The notes under the pieces: model-generated
Told to the model about the DNA's origin: nothing
Seen by the model: the letters and a program-made list of their open reading frames with translations, nothing else
Database searches by the model: none
Position numbers and translations under genes: made by a program
Assembly: GCF_000332095.2 (NCBI RefSeq)
Contig: NZ_KI913949.1
Coordinates: 2,979,170 to 3,043,169, forward strand
Source: Leptolyngbya sp. PCC 6406
Lineage (GTDB): Bacteria > Cyanobacteriota > Cyanobacteriia > Phormidesmidales > Phormidesmidaceae
Direction: 5' to 3'
Length of the DNA stretch: 64,000 bases
In this document: positions 5,289 to 47,601 of the stretch, piece by piece
How the letters are laid out: the number at the start of each line of letters is the position of its first letter
How positions within the stretch are numbered: the stretch's first letter is position 1

Positions 5289-6287
5289 TCAAGACTGCTG
5301 AGGCGCTAGCTTTTTGGGGTCAAATTCCTGTCCAGAGGACAAGACCGCATAGATCACACGAATGAGCTTGTGCATCACCGCCCCCACCACCGCCATCTTG
5401 TGCTTGCCATTGTCCAAGAGCCGTTGGCGAAAAGCTCTGACCTCAGGGCAATGACGCATCAGACTCAGCGCTGGGAAAAAAAGAGCTTCGCGCAGATGGG
5501 CATTGCCAATTTTGCACAACCGCGCCTTGCCATTGATAGAAGAGCCAGACTGATGCTCCTGGGGAGTCAACCCAGCAAAAGCCGCCAGTTGAGCGGCAGA
5601 GCCAAAGACCTTAATCGAGCCAATTTCCGCCAGGATAATGCTAGCGCTATGTTCAGCAATGCCAGTAATGGAGGTCAACAAGCGGCAGGGCTCCGCCAAC
5701 GATTCCTCCCCTTGAATATGCTGCTGGCAGCGCTCCTTGAGAGCCTTAGCCTGTTTTTCGAGAAACTCGATATGGGCCTCAATATCCGTTCTCAGTTCCG
5801 AGTCACGACAGAGCTCAAGGCGATTTTTCTCTTGGGTGAGCATCTGCTCCAGCGCCTTCAGACGGCGGGTGAGGCTCTGGAGCTGGGCGATCGCCGCTGG
5901 CGTGGGATGCCACAGACTGGGCTGGATATCTCGACAAAAGCGGGCAATCAGGGCGGCATCAGCGGCATCGTTCTTGGTGCGGCTGAGTTGACTTTTGGCA
6001 TACCCCTTGATGCGGGCTGGGTTGACGATACTGACCTGGTGGCCCTGCTCATGGAGATAGGTAGCTAAGTCATGGCCATAGATGTTGGTCGCCTCCAGAC
6101 AGGCATGAATTGCCCCGAGAGCATTCCCTTGGAGCCAATGGCTCAACTGCTCAAAGCCGCTGGGGGTGTTGTCAAACTTGGCGTGTTTAGAGGATTTGCC
6201 ATTACGCTTACCACCACTCAGTAAAGCTACGTCAAAGGTGGCTTTGCTGATATCAATACCGAGGAAGATGATGGGGGCTGTACTCAT
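5289..6287 (-). CDS. IS110-family transposase (DEDD recombinase)
   Basis: The protein has 332 aa from the preferred ATG at 6287. An upstream in-frame start at 6335 would add 16 residues, but the family normally begins a few residues before its GIDISKATFDV motif. The N-terminal RuvC-like domain shows the acidic residues: Asp12, the Glu of ACLEATNIYG, and the Asp pair of KNDAADAALIARF. A coiled coil at about 140-195 follows, then the C-terminal Transposase_20 domain with the serine-bearing motif GSSINGKARLCKIGNAHLRE. IS110 recombinases use a structured bridge RNA from the element's own non-coding end to pick target and donor. The gene is full length and looks intact. Confidence 0.93.
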   Translation of the reverse strand: MSTAPIIFLGIDISKATFDVALLSGGKRNGKSSKHAKFDNTPSGFEQLSHWLQGNALGAIHACLEATNIYGHDLATYLHEQGHQVSIVNPARIKGYAKSQLSRTKNDAADAALIARFCRDIQPSLWHPTPAAIAQLQSLTRRLKALEQMLTQEKNRLELCRDSELRTDIEAHIEFLEKQAKALKERCQQHIQGEESLAEPCRLLTSITGIAEHSASIILAEIGSIKVFGSAAQLAAFAGLTPQEHQSGSSINGKARLCKIGNAHLREALFFPALSLMRHCPEVRAFRQRLLDNGKHKMAVVGAVMHKLIRVIYAVLSSGQEFDPKKLAPQQS

Positions 6288-6440
6288 TGGACTGGCTCCA
6301 GAGAATAGAGGTTGGCAGGGGCTCAACAATCGCACTATCCTTGCTAAATTCGAGGTGCCCAGTCGGGCCGCTCATGATACTGTCCAGGCTGATTGGCGAT
6401 GCCCTTGGGGGAGGGGGGAGGCTCAATGAATCTACGAAAC
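6288..6440 (-). ncRNA. Candidate bridge-RNA region of the IS110 element
   Basis: In IS110-group elements a bridge RNA is encoded in the long non-coding end upstream of the recombinase. Here that is this stretch, read on the minus strand toward the transposase start. It has no gene. It contains local complementary segments, for example GGTTGGCAGGGGC near 6311 and GGCTGGCTCC near 6291, but I could not fold it. The assignment rests on position only. Confidence 0.3.
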
Positions 6441-7340: not shown

Positions 7341-8546
7341 TTAGGCTTCTAGTAATTCTAACTGTGTAATTACCCTTGGATACTGCTGAAAATAATTTCT
7401 AGGTGGGCTTTGATTAGATTTTAGCGAAATGATATGTTGAGCTATTTGATTAGATATAAGGGGTGGGACAGCATCACCAATCTGATTATACTTAGCAGCC
7501 AAAGCACCCTCAAAAAAGTAGTGCGTAGGAAATCCCTGTAATATAGCCATTTCCCGAACCGTGAGCAACCTATCTTGCTCAGGATGAGCATATCGACCAT
7601 TCCCAACATGACCACATTCCCGAGTGATCGTTGCAGCAACATCGTGCCACTTTAGGCGACCATAAACATCTGGAAAAGAACCTGGTCTCGCACGAAACAT
7701 CGATGGAATAAGTAGTTTTTTCTTTTCCTCGTCAGAGATTTTGGGATTTTTCATAATATCTCCCCAGGAACCTCCATCTTTTGGAATAGCCTGTATTCGT
7801 GACAGAACAACCGAAGTCATTCCTGGTGATACATGCATAGGATCAGACGATTTCTCTTGACCCGCATTAGTCTTTTGTAAATGAGCAATAGCCTGCCAAA
7901 CCGTGACTTTTTCTACCTGACGTTTGAGTGGGCAACCACCGATAAATCCATGATCACGTCTAGCTATTATTAACGCCCTTTCTCGTCTCTGTGGCAGACC
8001 ATACTCTGAAAGTTCATGGATATCTGCGTATATTGAATATCCTAAGACATTCAACCGATCATAAAGTACCTGAAAATGATGTTGATGTTTCCCTCGTAGT
8101 AATTCTTTTACATTTTCCATCACGAGAAATTCGGGCAAGAATTCTTCAACAAAATCAGAGGTACGAACCACCAACTTATTCCGTGGATCATCACCCAGAT
8201 GATTTTTGGAATTTTTTTGGGAGAATCCTGTACAAGGAGGGCAGGCAATCAATACATGCAGATCCCCCTTTTTTAGACCTAATTCTTCACGATATGACTT
8301 AGGCTCTAACTTCAATAAATCAGCGTACTTAGGTTCAATACCAATATTGCGATGATAAGTAGAATTACATCGCGTGGAAGAAGCTTTATGTTTTCCTCTA
8401 CCAGGTTTAGCTACTTCGATATCAACAGCTCCAATTATCTCAAAATAGTCCCTATAGGTACGAAAGCCTTCACTCATACCCCCACACCCTGAAAACAAGT
8501 CAACCACTTTCCACAATGTATTAGGTTTTGGAGAATTGTTAGGCAT
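7341..8546 (-). CDS. DNA (cytosine-5-)-methyltransferase of a type II R-M system
   Basis: This is a C5-cytosine methyltransferase. The motifs run in canonical order: I VVDLFSGCGGMSEGF, IV ACPPCTGFSQ with the catalytic Cys, VI EFLVMENVKELL, VIII QRRERALIIARR, then a target-recognition region of about 90 residues, IX LTVREMAILQGFP and X QIGDAVPPLISNQ. From the ATG at 8546 it has 401 aa. Starts at 8600 or 8633 would add 18 or 29 residues of non-family sequence and crowd the divergent promoter. It diverges from the RHH-endonuclease pair. AT content is far above pntAB and the kinases, which suggests transfer. The target sequence cannot be read. Confidence 0.93.
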   Translation of the reverse strand: MPNNSPKPNTLWKVVDLFSGCGGMSEGFRTYRDYFEIIGAVDIEVAKPGRGKHKASSTRCNSTYHRNIGIEPKYADLLKLEPKSYREELGLKKGDLHVLIACPPCTGFSQKNSKNHLGDDPRNKLVVRTSDFVEEFLPEFLVMENVKELLRGKHQHHFQVLYDRLNVLGYSIYADIHELSEYGLPQRRERALIIARRDHGFIGGCPLKRQVEKVTVWQAIAHLQKTNAGQEKSSDPMHVSPGMTSVVLSRIQAIPKDGGSWGDIMKNPKISDEEKKKLLIPSMFRARPGSFPDVYGRLKWHDVAATITRECGHVGNGRYAHPEQDRLLTVREMAILQGFPTHYFFEGALAAKYNQIGDAVPPLISNQIAQHIISLKSNQSPPRNYFQQYPRVITQLELLEA

Positions 8547-8582
8547 CGCAATGAGGTAACGAGGTTCTTTGGCAAATGTAAC

Positions 8583-8650
8583 ACATTGTGAGACAGACAT
8601 TGTAGCCGCCTTTTGATAACGTTTTCGTAACACAATGATTCACAATGTCT
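8583..8650. promoter_or_regulatory. Divergent promoter region with repeated ACATTGT boxes
   Basis: Four copies of one box lie between the methyltransferase and RHH genes: ACATTGTGA at 8583-8591, ACATTGT at 8597-8603, inverted ACAATGA at 8632-8638, and inverted ACAATGT at 8642-8648. AGACATTGT (8595-8603) and ACAATGTCT (8642-8650) are perfect inverted repeats. Ribbon-helix-helix proteins bind such short repeated boxes, so this may be the operator of the adjacent 63-aa protein, controlling both directions. Confidence 0.55.
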
Positions 8651-8657
8651 CTCACCT

Positions 8658-8849
8658 ATGTCAAGGGCACCTAAGACTGAATTTTTGCAAATCAGGCTAT
8701 CACAGGAAGATCGAGACCGGATAGCTCATGTTGCGTCCAATGAGCATTTAGAGCCATCAACATGGGCAAGACAGATTTTACTTAAAGCTGTGGAAGACTG
8801 GGAAAAGCTCAACCTACCTAAGCAAGATGTTGAAGGTAGGAAGATCTAG
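8658..8849 (+). CDS. Ribbon-helix-helix DNA-binding protein, putative R-M controller
   Basis: This 63-aa protein is of the Arc/MetJ/CopG type: a short beta strand (TEFLQIRLS), helix A (QEDRDRIAHVASNE), a turn, then helix B (EPSTWARQILLKAVEDWEKL). It probably dimerises and binds DNA. It ends 3 bp before the endonuclease ATG. In many type II systems a small C protein with a helix-turn-helix delays the endonuclease. Here an RHH protein occupies that place, and four repeated boxes lie just upstream. A control role is inferred from position only. Confidence 0.7.
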   Translation: MSRAPKTEFLQIRLSQEDRDRIAHVASNEHLEPSTWARQILLKAVEDWEKLNLPKQDVEGRKI

Positions 8850-8852
8850 TTC

Positions 8853-9629
8853 ATGCTTGCGCCCAATTTGGACGAATTATTAGAGCAATTAAATGCAACT
8901 GCTCCACAACTGACCGCAACTAGGCTGATGTTACTTAATCGTATGGCATCCGCTCTTCAGGTTAGATTTGGTGGTTTCGTAAATCAAAGTAGCGATCTTG
9001 CGACCCCCTTGTTTTCTGAGTATTTTGCGAGTCGCTTACTAATTCATCATGCCGTAGTCGAAGAAAGACTTAACAAAAAGTCATTTGAGTATATATTTCG
9101 TGATGCCTTGCGAAATGATGGCAAAAATGCCTACATCACTGCCAGTGATGTCTATCCAGGAGCAGATTTAATAGTAGATGAAACCAGAATATCGCTTAAG
9201 ACTGAGGCATCAAAAAATATCCGAGAAGCAAAGATTACTATTTCTAAATTTATGGAAGCTCGCTGGATTCGAGATCAGGATACTGTTGGCTTAGCACGGC
9301 TAGCTTCTGAGCGACTACGTGAACATCTAGCAGGCTACGATCGTATCGTGATGCTTCGAGCCTTTAACATGCCGAGGAACGAGGTGAAATATGAGTTGAT
9401 AGAAATTCCGCACAGCCTGTTAAGTTTAGCGTCATTCTTGCAGCCGAATGACATTACCCTCAGCCCCGGTCGAAGTGGAGGAGGCAGCACTACAATTTGG
9501 CAAAACAATCGAGAAGCGTTTACTCTCAGATTTGACGGCAGTGTAGAAAAATTGACTATTACAAACCTGTCGGTAGATCTTTGCACGAGCCATGCAACGT
9601 GGAATATACCACTGACCATTCTAATTTAG
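8853..9629 (+). CDS. Putative type II restriction endonuclease (PD-(D/E)xK)
   Basis: The 258-aa protein has no name that I recognise. At about residues 105-120 it shows GADLIVDETRISLKTEA, an acidic residue followed by a strand with E/S-x-K, the pattern of a PD-(D/E)xK nuclease core. The upstream helical region (about 60-90) and the basic C-terminal half fit a small restriction enzyme. It is divergent from a C5 methyltransferase and cotranscribed with a small regulator, the usual architecture of a type II system. The stop codon is only 16 bp from attC-like site C, so the whole R-M module fills a cassette. Cleavage specificity is unknown. Confidence 0.7.
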   Translation: MLAPNLDELLEQLNATAPQLTATRLMLLNRMASALQVRFGGFVNQSSDLATPLFSEYFASRLLIHHAVVEERLNKKSFEYIFRDALRNDGKNAYITASDVYPGADLIVDETRISLKTEASKNIREAKITISKFMEARWIRDQDTVGLARLASERLREHLAGYDRIVMLRAFNMPRNEVKYELIEIPHSLLSLASFLQPNDITLSPGRSGGGSTTIWQNNREAFTLRFDGSVEKLTITNLSVDLCTSHATWNIPLTILI

Positions 9630-9645
9630 AGGCTGATGCATGAGC

Positions 9646-9726
9646 AGCTAATGGCACAATGCAGCGGCGGCAAGCAATCTCGACAACCACACAAGTGTCT
9701 CTCGACTGTCCGCTGCCATGACGTGT
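9646..9726 (-). other. attC-like recombination site C, split by a group II intron
   Basis: This is the left part of a site that continues at 10458-10462 on the other side of the intron. Rejoined it is 86 bp, matching sites A and B. Rejoining gives GTTAGAC, a perfect GTTRRRY core, at the right end. The arms ATGCAGCGGCGG and ATGGCAGCGGACAG pair with extra unpaired bases. The left core AGCTAAT departs from consensus at two positions. On the minus strand the site follows the stop codon of the 248-aa gene. That stop (TAA) overlaps the core. Confidence 0.7.
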
Positions 9727-10457
9727 GTGCGCCCAGTATGGGCATGAACTAATGGGGTGAAAGTCCCCTGTGGGAGAACCAGCCATCCAAATGCTCGTAA
9801 GTCATAGGAGCCGAGAGATGGACAACCACTAGCTTAAGGCAAGGGCGTTTCCGCGAGAGAGGGTCGGTCGGAAGCCAGCGGCAAAAGTGCGAGCCGACGG
9901 ACAGAAACGTCATAGAAGGCCGAGTCTCTGGGGCGAGTTGGCACAACACAACATAGGCGCAGCCTTCCCGAAGGGTAGCCCTATGGTTCAGGAGATACAG
10001 TAAATGACGCGGTTGCGCATGGACAGTTCACGCTCTTATCTGGGGAGATCTGCCTCCTTGGCAGTCTTTGAGGCTAAGGGAGTCTGACTGAGGACTATCT
10101 GGAAACGGGTAGGAAGCCACAGAACCCTAAGGACTGGAAGACGGCCCGACAGTTGGCAACAATCGTCGCCGGAAGCAGAAGTCAGCCGAGGCCATAGTAG
10201 TCAAACGCTGGCCTGTAATGGGCTAGACAAGGCAAAGGGCCAAACCATGGAAGGCAGAGAGGAGCCGCCAGGGCTCGTTCTGAGCGTTGAACCCGAATGG
10301 GGGAGCTATAGGAACGGCGCTTAATGGTGTAGCCAGCTCTGGGAGTCAGAGTCGAAAGAGTCTTGATTTCTAAAACTTTCTAAGGAACCGCCCGGTGCGG
10401 ACCCGCACGCCGGGTGGTGTGGGAGGGGGAGATCGTGAGGTTTTCCCCTATCCCGAT
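9727..10457 (+). mobile_element. ORF-less group II intron inserted in attC site C
   Basis: The 5' end is GTGCGCCCAG, a common bacterial group II intron start. The next 60 bases (ATGGGGTGAAAGTCCCCT) form a domain I-type hairpin. Near the 3' end, 10382-10425 looks like domain V: a stem ACCGCCCGG/CCGGGTGGT around TGCGGACCCGCA. It is followed by domain VI, GGGAGATCGTGAGG, and TTTTCCCCTATCCCGAT with a bulged A, ending in AT. At about 731 nt with no reverse transcriptase, it must depend on a maturase elsewhere. It lies on the strand opposite to the cassette genes, as known for attC-targeting introns. Confidence 0.85.
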
Positions 10458-11203
10458 TAGACCGTGGAAAGTACAGTATCCTGATTCGGAAACTTTCCAG
10501 ACATCACAACAGCATGGCATCTTTGCTGTCCATCTACTATCCCCATTGTTTGTTTGATATGTATAAATTTCGAAGCGATCTTTTTTGAATGAAATGTCTT
10601 TGTTAAAGTAAGCGCATTGGCAAAGTCATCACCCTGATAATATAAATGGTGATCAAAACTTGCCTCTTCATGAACTTTACCATCATGAATATGAACTGTA
10701 GGGAAGAAGAGTTTATCAGGCAATCGAGTGACAAACTCAAACGCTATTGGATGTGGTTTCTTCAGATTTTTCGTGGATTCTCGTAACTTGAATACGGCAA
10801 AACCATAGTCTTGATATTCGGGTAAAAGATCCCAAACTTGCCTTGATAATTTGAATTGAGGATCTAGACGATCAAAATCATTAAGCGTAGGGATAAAACT
10901 CGCATCATAATCTCCTACTTCATATACGGTCAGCGATCCTGAAGCGGAACGACACACGTTTTTAGTCAAATCAGGAAAACCCATTTCAATGTGATCGAAG
11001 AAATCTTTATAGCCGTCTAAAGGAATAAAACGAATAGTCATATATTCATCGTGAGAGCCAACGGGCAATGGCAAAATCATCGCCACATCTTGGCTGGCTT
11101 TATACCCCATGCTATAAACCAAGAACTGCTTTGAATCAGCAGAACGTCTTGCAAAGATCTTTGTGCCTTCTACTAATGGAACTGAAGGAACGATAATACA
11201 CAT
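10457..11203 (-). CDS. Cassette-borne protein of unknown function, 248 aa
   Basis: I do not recognise the family. The protein has no signal peptide or membrane helix. The N-terminus (MCIIVPSVPLVEGTKIFAR) is hydrophobic-rich and may be a strand. AMILPLPVG at about residue 41 and a Trp/Tyr-rich segment (QVWDLLPEYQDYGFAVFKL) at about 145 are notable. It has several Cys and His residues but no paired metal motif. It is AT-rich like its neighbours. The stop codon is formed at the intron junction: its last base is intron sequence, and removing the intron would regenerate TAA. There is no good ribosome-binding site. Its cassette runs from the core at 11255 to site C. Confidence 0.65.
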   Translation of the reverse strand: MCIIVPSVPLVEGTKIFARRSADSKQFLVYSMGYKASQDVAMILPLPVGSHDEYMTIRFIPLDGYKDFFDHIEMGFPDLTKNVCRSASGSLTVYEVGDYDASFIPTLNDFDRLDPQFKLSRQVWDLLPEYQDYGFAVFKLRESTKNLKKPHPIAFEFVTRLPDKLFFPTVHIHDGKVHEEASFDHHLYYQGDDFANALTLTKTFHSKKIASKFIHIKQTMGIVDGQQRCHAVVMSGKFPNQDTVLSTV

Positions 11204-11254
11204 AATCTTAACCAGGAGGATATTTACAAATACAACTTAATGGATGACTCAACA

Positions 11255-11261
11255 GTCTAAC
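11255..11261 (-). other. Perfect integron-type core site at the right edge of the array
   Basis: GTCTAAC on the plus strand reads GTTAGAC on the minus strand, an exact GTTRRRY core identical to the core rebuilt in site C. It lies 51 bp upstream of the 248-aa gene and so defines the possible start of that cassette. The next copy, GTTTAGAC, is inverted 5 bp away as the first arm of the hairpin array. Confidence 0.5.
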
Positions 11262-11263
11262 TC

Positions 11264-11512
11264 GTGTTTAGACAGATCAGGGTGCCTCTACTCTGCCTAA
11301 ACACCTTGTGTAGGGGAGATAGACAGAGTTGGTGATGTCTATCTCCCTGCTGAGGGGATATAGGCAGATTACAGTCTTTATAAGCACCCAAATGGGTGGA
11401 TTAGGCAGATTATAGTCTGCCTATCTAGCTGCTGGGGCGATATAGACCGATCATGATCTGCCTATATCGCCTGAATAGGGTGTTTAGACAGATCACAGTC
11501 TGTCTGAACATC
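11264..11512. repeat. Tandem array of six related hairpins
   Basis: Six units of about 34-41 bp lie 4-10 bp apart. The inner core is shared (about TAGRCAGATYA...TCTGYCTA), and the outer stems differ but remain paired. Unit 1 (11264-11304) has stem GTGTTTAG/CTAAACAC. Unit 2 (11314-11347) has GGGAGATAGACA/TGTCTATCTCCC. Unit 3 (about 11354-11390) is degenerate. Unit 4 (11402-11423) has TAGGCAGA/TCTGCCTA. Unit 5 (11436-11471) has GGCGATATAG/CTATATCGCC. Unit 6 (11477-11512) has a 16-bp stem with two wobble pairs. Linkers contain TGCTG/TGAAT and G-runs. No gene overlaps. Confidence 0.85.
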
Positions 11513-11794
11513 CTGGGGGAAGGAGTTCGGCAGACAGCTTCACAAAAGCCTTACCAGCAGATTCAAACCGTGGGAAGCAGCATTCAAGCGATAAAGACCC
11601 TTTAAGCAGGTCGGCCTGATCCAAAATCTCGCCTAGAAAGAGGTTGGGTGGCTGGGGCGCAGTGGGTCATCAGCGGGATGGGGTTCGGTACTGTAGCGCA
11701 TTTGAAGGTTTGCTAAACCGCCAACCGTGCCGGGGCTAGCCATAATCCACCGTAGTCTCCAGCTCCTGGTTCACCCGCGCTAGTACTGGGCGGC
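11513..11794. other. Gap between hairpin array and repeats, no gene assigned
   Basis: I see no convincing gene. The minus strand near 11750-11800 reads YFRRPVLARVNQELETTVDY then G and a stop. It could be the tail of a gene cut off by the repeat on its right, but it is too short to name. Confidence 0.3.
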
Positions 11795-12050
11795 GGAAAT
11801 ACCTAGCCGTTCATCGTGGCACACTCGGCCCCTCACCCTAGCCCTCTCCCACGGGGAGAGGGGACCGGAAAAGGTTGGGCTGGTGCGACAATAGTGGAAA
11901 TACCTGGCCGTTCATCGTGGCACACTCGGCCCCTCACCGTTCGGCTGAGCTCACGCCGAAGCCCTAGCCCTCTCCCAGGGGGAGAGGGGACCGGAAAAGG
12001 TTGGGCTGGTGCGACAATAGTGGGCTGATTTACACCCTGCGGTACTAGTA
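11795..12050 (+). repeat. Dispersed repeat, two direct copies ('GGACCGGAAAA..GTTGGGCTGG' family)
   Basis: Two direct copies start at about 11795 and 11895 and run through 'ccgttcatcgtggcacactc', 'agccctctccca', 'gagaggggaccggaaaagg' and 'gtgcgacaatagtgg'. The second copy carries an extra 'gttcggctgagctcacgccgaa' segment. Other copies lie at 44662-44772 and, inverted, at 61654-61808. There is no coding function. Confidence 0.75.
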
Positions 12051-47349: not shown

Positions 47350-47502
47350 AGCCCATCCCCCCCGATTGCTTTAAATAGCGCCGGGGTGCTCAACCTGTCA
47401 AAGCGAACAAACTTCAGACAGAACTAGGGGCAAACAGGTTTCCCCTGTCACCACCACTACCGAAGCTGGCCCTACGTCGTTTTGGTACCCTTGACCGCAA
47501 GC

Positions 47503-47582
47503 AACGCTTTCCTCCGCTGGTCTGAACCAGGTCAGGTTCTGAGGGTATAATCTCAGCCCGATTGCTCGGACACCCCTAGCTT
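47503..47582 (-). ncRNA. TPP riboswitch
   Basis: On the minus strand: GCTAGGGGTG, then CGGGCTGAGATTATACCCTC, GAACCTGACCTGGTTCAGAC, CAGCGGAGGAAAGC. This is the thi-box, with its CUGAGA, ACCC, GAACCUGA and GCGNAGG elements in order. It precedes the SSS permease by about 150 nt and lies in the gap after the glycosyltransferase gene. Confidence 0.92.
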
Positions 47583-47601
47583 GAGGCTGATTGTATCAGC
47601 C

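What the first reader, a model, noticed from the sequence alone, without database searches (positions are those of the whole stretch)
11264..11512. Tandem array of six covarying hairpins at the edge of the cassette island
Six units with a shared inner palindrome (TAGRCAGATYA...TCTGYCTA) have different outer stems that stay complementary: GTGTTTAG/CTAAACAC, GGGAGATAGACA/TGTCTATCTCCC, GGCGATATAG/CTATATCGCC. Unit 6 keeps pairing through G-T wobbles. Such compensatory change means the folded form is selected. No gene overlaps, and I know no named element with this layout. The first arm, GTTTAGAC, resembles the integron core beside it.
Basis: seen in the sequence. Interest (0 to 1): 0.82.

Follow-up and report, generated by a model that had tools for sequence, protein, structure and literature searches.

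The report
Orphan integron attI hairpin array
The six hairpins are most likely a leftover gene-capture site of a cyanobacterial integron that has lost its integrase; in cyanobacteria this site is usually a phased row of palindromes about 41 bases apart, a form I found described nowhere in the papers I could search.

Summary
The array is real and far beyond chance (fold z -9.2; 8 pattern hits against 0.04 expected). Outer stems stay complementary in only four of six units. It is not a stand-alone element: the same architecture lies directly upstream of integron integrase genes (intI) across cyanobacteria, between the cassette junction RYYYAA^C and intI. Among intI-linked relatives, sequence identity jumps from about 0.3 to 1.0 exactly at that junction. 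Palindrome centres are spaced 20-21 and 40-42 nt, and the first unit covaries across 50 integrons (0 of 500 shuffles). The window copy keeps the junction (11255-11261), a first gene reading away from it, and about 40 bp resembling the flank just before intI, but no intI. The genome holds at least 11 such arrays and no integrase above cut-off; arrays without intI are common elsewhere. Best reading: an orphan attI whose palindromes are accessory integrase-binding box pairs on double-stranded DNA (binding inferred, not shown). Covariation among the orphan copies does not clearly exceed shuffles, and G-T pairs are not enriched over A-C, so a selected single-stranded or RNA fold is not supported, though not excluded. 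New variant of a known kind.

The parts
11255..11261 (+). GTCTAAC, the RYYYAAC core at the cassette edge; crossover expected between 11260 and 11261
   Evidence: identity among 45 pairs from 34 intI-linked relatives jumps to 1.0 at AA^C; a CM built only from intI-linked sites starts at 11259 here (20.1 bits, E 0.0027 in 1 kb)
11264..11304 (.). unit 1 (GTGTTTAG/CTAAACAC outer stem, 15-nt loop)
   Evidence: a similar long loop is seen in intI-linked L110, L068 and L135
11314..11347 (.). unit 2 (12-bp perfect stem)
11354..11389 (.). unit 3 (degenerate 3' arm)
11385..11398 (.). link hairpin CACCC-AAAT-GGGTG between units 3 and 4
   Evidence: CCC/GGG links recur in relatives
11394..11429 (.). unit 4 (only the inner 8 bp, 11402-11409/11416-11423, pair)
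11436..11471 (.). unit 5
   Evidence: arms 18 nt, 89% complementary
11478..11513 (.). unit 6 (with G-T wobbles)
11519..11559 (+). probable remnant of the intI-proximal flank, with last box GTTCGGC 11525-11531
   Evidence: aligns to the stretch ending 79 bp before intI in L110 and to the same place in L055 and L135; score 32, shuffled maximum 31, 95% level 26
10457..11203 (-). ORF (248 aa, DGQQR motif, no Pfam or PADLOC match) in first-cassette position, reading away from the array, cut by a group II intron
9721..10462 (+). ORF-less group II intron interrupting that gene (ends approximate)
   Evidence: Rfam RF02001, RF01998, RF00029 at 9847-10457; sequence of the ends

Best explanation
The array is an orphan attI: the cassette-insertion site of a cyanobacterial integron whose intI gene, once at the right, is gone. 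Cassettes enter at RYYYAA^C (11255-11261), so the gene at 10457-11203 (-) lies where a first cassette would. The palindromes between junction and intI are read as tandem inverted pairs of the integrase box (TTAGRCAG/CTGYCTAA), spaced about two and four helical turns apart. Integrase molecules would line up on one face of double-stranded DNA and help synapsis with the folded attC of an incoming cassette, as the two accessory repeats of attI1 do on a smaller scale. Shown: position next to intI in relatives, junction, phasing, covariation, gene polarity, no intI detected here. Inferred: integrase binding, the role in insertion, and that this copy came by intI loss rather than by dispersal of the array. 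The confidence given is for the identity as an attI-type site; for the box-pair mechanism it is about 0.55.
For: A blind DNA search with the window array brought up arrays beside intI: G171 (intact intI about 270 bp away), G159 (truncated), G162 (disrupted). Fold z in -280..-80 from intI: median -3.43 in 85 cyanobacterial loci (54 below -2.5) against 13 of 227 further upstream, 1 of 8 in one picocyanobacterial family, 17 of 60 non-cyanobacterial. Autocorrelation peaks at 20 and 40-41 only there; centre spacings cluster at 20-21 and 40-42. Unit-1 covariation 0.219 against 0.100 +/- 0.015 shuffled, slid maximum 0.144. Junction. First gene reads away in 44 of 52 intI-linked and 19 of 22 orphan arrays. 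intI-side remnant in the window. No intI in the genome above cut-off or near the copies.
Against: No intI and no canonical attC were found in the window, so no functioning integron is here. The CM score of the window itself is modest (20.1 bits), and the intI-side remnant only just exceeds the shuffles. At least 11 arrays in one genome without integrase is more than simple loss of one integron predicts. Integrase binding was not tested. Dispersed copies could also come from duplication.
Confidence: 0.85

Rival explanations
1. The units are selected as folded single strands (attC-like ssDNA or an RNA leader of the first gene), not as double-stranded sites.
For: Outer stems differ between units yet stay complementary in units 1, 2, 5 and 6; links have an attC-like order RYYYAAC..CCC..GGG..GTTRRRY in some relatives; strong fold z.
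Against: G-T is not clearly enriched over A-C in stems compared with control regions (203:252 against 149:214), as a one-strand fold would give; phasing of 20.5/41 nt; no terminator or promoter signal; no Rfam match.
Confidence: 0.25
2. The arrays are a dispersed non-autonomous mobile repeat (MITE-like) that also lands beside intI.
For: At least 11 copies in two subfamilies in this genome and many intI-free arrays in other genomes.
Against: One edge is nearly always the RYYYAA^C junction, usually with a gene reading away; right ends vary and some keep intI-side flank or intI remnants; target duplications were not looked for.
Confidence: 0.12
3. Complementarity is kept by a mutational process (template-switch correction of quasi-palindromes), without selection on the array.
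For: Would give compensatory changes in unit-specific stems (own knowledge of quasi-palindrome correction; not tested here).
Against: Phasing and position relative to the junction and intI are conserved across many families; orphan copies show no covariation clearly above shuffles, although only five sequences.
Confidence: 0.1

Closest known systems
attI1 of class 1 integrons (simple site plus direct repeats DR1 and DR2)
   Same: Lies between intI and the first cassette; crossover at the RYYYAA^C / G^TTRRRY junction; extra integrase-binding repeats beside the simple site (PMC8946536)
   Different: Here several palindromic units, centres phased about 20.5/41 nt, array start 177-426 bp from intI in 59 relatives, not two direct repeats; no intI detected in this genome
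attIA of Vibrio cholerae
   Same: Chromosomal integron insertion site next to intI
   Different: attIA is reported to lack such repeats (PMC8946536)
attC sites of gene cassettes
   Same: Palindromic; R''/R' type boxes; some links between units read RYYYAAC..GTTRRRY
   Different: attC ends a cassette downstream of its gene; here the gene starts at the array and reads away; links are only about 30 nt
CALIN (attC clusters lacking intI)
   Same: Integron remnants without integrase (PMC8618304)
   Different: Here the attI side, not an attC cluster, is what remains

Membership tests
integron attI | lies between intI and the first cassette | tested here: not met
   no intI near the window copy or above cut-off in the genome; met for many relatives. 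Hence 'orphan attI', not a member of a complete integron
integron attI | cassette junction RYYYAA^C at one edge | tested here: met
   GTCTAAC 11255-11261; identity boundary at AA^C in 45 pairs of 34 intI-linked relatives; CM hit at 11259
integron attI | first cassette gene reads away from the site | tested here: met
   ORF 10457-11203 (-), start 54 nt from the junction
integron attI | bound and recombined by IntI | not testable with these tools
   needs binding and recombination assays
complete integron | cassettes with attC sites | tested here: not met
   simple scan for RYYYAAC/GTTRRRY hairpins found none in the window (0; shuffled 0-6), a rough test
attC site | site at the 3' end of a cassette gene, single R''-L''-L'-R' hairpin | tested here: not met
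   gene start, not end, faces the array; six tandem units
known structured RNA | match to an Rfam family | tested here: not met
   no hit at the array at gathering thresholds

The most novel reading that the evidence does not exclude
Cyanobacterial integrons use an attI built as a phased array of integrase box pairs, and such arrays persist in many copies per genome without intI, serving in trans as docking or expression platforms for defence and restriction-modification genes.
Probability: 0.2. Interest if true: 0.85.

Novelty: new variant of a known kind. Interest (0 to 1): 0.7.

Why it matters
As far as the papers I could search show, attI sites are little described outside mobile and Vibrio integrons. 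A phased palindromic attI with a sharp junction, together with a covariance model that finds it (152 of 390 genomes), makes integrase docking in cyanobacteria testable and uncovers integron remnants that an intI search would miss.

Tried and rejected
Rfam families (none at the array). Promoter and terminator scan 11150-11700 (none). attC scan of the window (none). tblastn for intI remnants beside the own-genome copies (none convincing; the first run used only 6 intI sequences because of a filter that was too strict, the second 82). G-T against A-C strand test (no one-strand signal). Covariation on the five closest copies (inconclusive). Literature: nine searches of the open library gave no description of cyanobacterial attI arrays; subscription papers and preprints were not searchable, and two papers sought were not held.

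Full report
Observation. The array at 11264-11512 exists as described in its main points: six units about 41-46 nt apart with a shared inner palindrome and no overlapping gene. The inner pattern with up to three mismatches hits 8 times in the window against 0.04 expected, and 11255-11520 folds with z -9.2 on the + strand and -8.1 on the - strand. Units 1, 2, 5 and 6 have long complementary outer stems; units 3 and 4 do not. Rfam has no match there.

Family in this genome. DNA and pattern searches found four further copies in the genome (near C1:423616, 2881593, 2916322, 3077886) and one in another genus, G011 (78% identity), besides the window. On the five closest copies 87% of cells pair, but covariation does not clearly exceed shuffles.

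Link to integrons. A search of 390 genomes of the class with the window array found short matches in six further genomes. Three of these carry intI or clear remnants directly to the right of the array: G171 with an intact gene about 270 bp away, G159 with a truncated one, G162 with a disrupted one; a fourth, G092, has only a short resemblance. intI above the family cut-off occurs in 124 of 390 genomes of the class. Reading the regions upstream of about 90 intI genes showed arrays of palindromic units in most cyanobacteria, with inner boxes that differ between lineages but stay palindromic.

Measurements. In the stretch 80-280 bp upstream of intI the fold z has median -3.43 in 85 cyanobacterial loci (54 below -2.5); further upstream only 13 of 227 windows are below -2.5; in one picocyanobacterial family 1 of 8, and in non-cyanobacteria 17 of 60. 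A few of the 85 are the same loci reached by two searches. Several Anaerolineales and other Chloroflexi have short versions of about 2-4 units. Palindrome autocorrelation peaks at 20 and 40-41 nt only in the cyanobacterial attI region, and centre spacings cluster at 20-21 and 40-42 nt in 59 arrays. In unit 1 of 50 intI-linked arrays, aligned by sequence from the AAC edge, the covariation score is 0.219 against 0.100 +/- 0.015 in shuffles, 0 of 500 reaching it, and at most 0.144 when slid. Candidate edges in that step were picked by a sequence pattern, and loci whose pick looked wrong, duplicates, and nine further units without a similar first hairpin were left out by eye (one search lists 59, one search uses 50); this choice favours pairing to an unknown degree, although it does not by itself create two-sided changes.

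Junction. In 45 pairs of intI-linked relatives (34 integrons) with similar arrays and unlike left flanks, identity rises from about 0.3 to 1.0 exactly at RYYYAA^C, the known integron crossover. In the window this is GTCTAAC at 11255-11261. A covariance model built from intI-linked first units only, without the window, places its best match in 11000-12000 at 11259 (20.1 bits).

Why the window copy is read as an orphan attI. The gene on the junction side, 10457-11203 on the - strand, starts 54 nt from the junction and reads away; the same polarity holds in 19 of 22 arrays without intI and 44 of 52 with it. Right of the array, 11519-11559 aligns with the stretch just before intI in L110 (79 bp before the gene), L055 and L135, with a score above all 200 shuffles, although only just (32 against 31). 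No intI was found in the genome above the cut-off or near the copies.

Orphans are common. The model hits 152 of 390 genomes. Of the 30 best loci, 9 have intI coding sequence in the available flank and most of the others do not. In this genome it found six more arrays of a second subfamily, again without intI, so at least 11 in all (two of the six are weak model hits, recognised as arrays by reading); in the same genus G003 has at least six, one with what reads as an intI start. First genes of orphans include cytosine and adenine methylases, Eco57I and Eco29kI types and a HicA-like protein, and in this genome an HNH nuclease, a PDC-S11 candidate, and a UvrD helicase next to a gene matching part of UG35. 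Whether this exceeds what first cassettes carry in general was not tested.

Mechanism. The box TTAGRCAG beside the junction is inverted relative to the RYYYAAC core, as the L box is to the R box in attI1 (own knowledge), and each unit repeats it as an inverted pair. I infer tandem integrase box pairs on double-stranded DNA, akin to the accessory repeats DR1 and DR2 of attI1, which favour attI x attC recombination, while attIA of Vibrio lacks them (PMC8946536). G-T pairs are not enriched over A-C, which speaks against selection for one folded strand, though it does not exclude it. Binding and function were not tested.

Novelty. The open-library searches found no account of such attI arrays in cyanobacteria; that is absence in the library searched, no more.

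Noticed in passing
window 9721-10462: ORF-less group II intron on the + strand cutting the 3' part of the DGQQR gene; the reading frame continues for a short stretch across it.
   Followed up: partly
window 7341-9629: C5 cytosine methylase and SmaI-family restriction enzyme near the array.
   Followed up: partly
window 5289-6335: IS110-family transposase gene.
   Followed up: no
window 47492-47587: TPP riboswitch on the - strand.
   Followed up: no
L039 1-1566: Tandem 308-bp repeated frames upstream of the attI array in G159, perhaps a repeated cassette.
   Followed up: no
L066 (upstream of intI): Near-identical 41-nt units TATACAGACGAAGATCTGTATAACGTCCGATATTGGAGAAC in a row, as if recently amplified.
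   Followed up: no
L033 11127-12395 and L035 10195-11463: The same transposase-like gene (identical 422-aa translation) lies near two of the orphan arrays.
   Followed up: no
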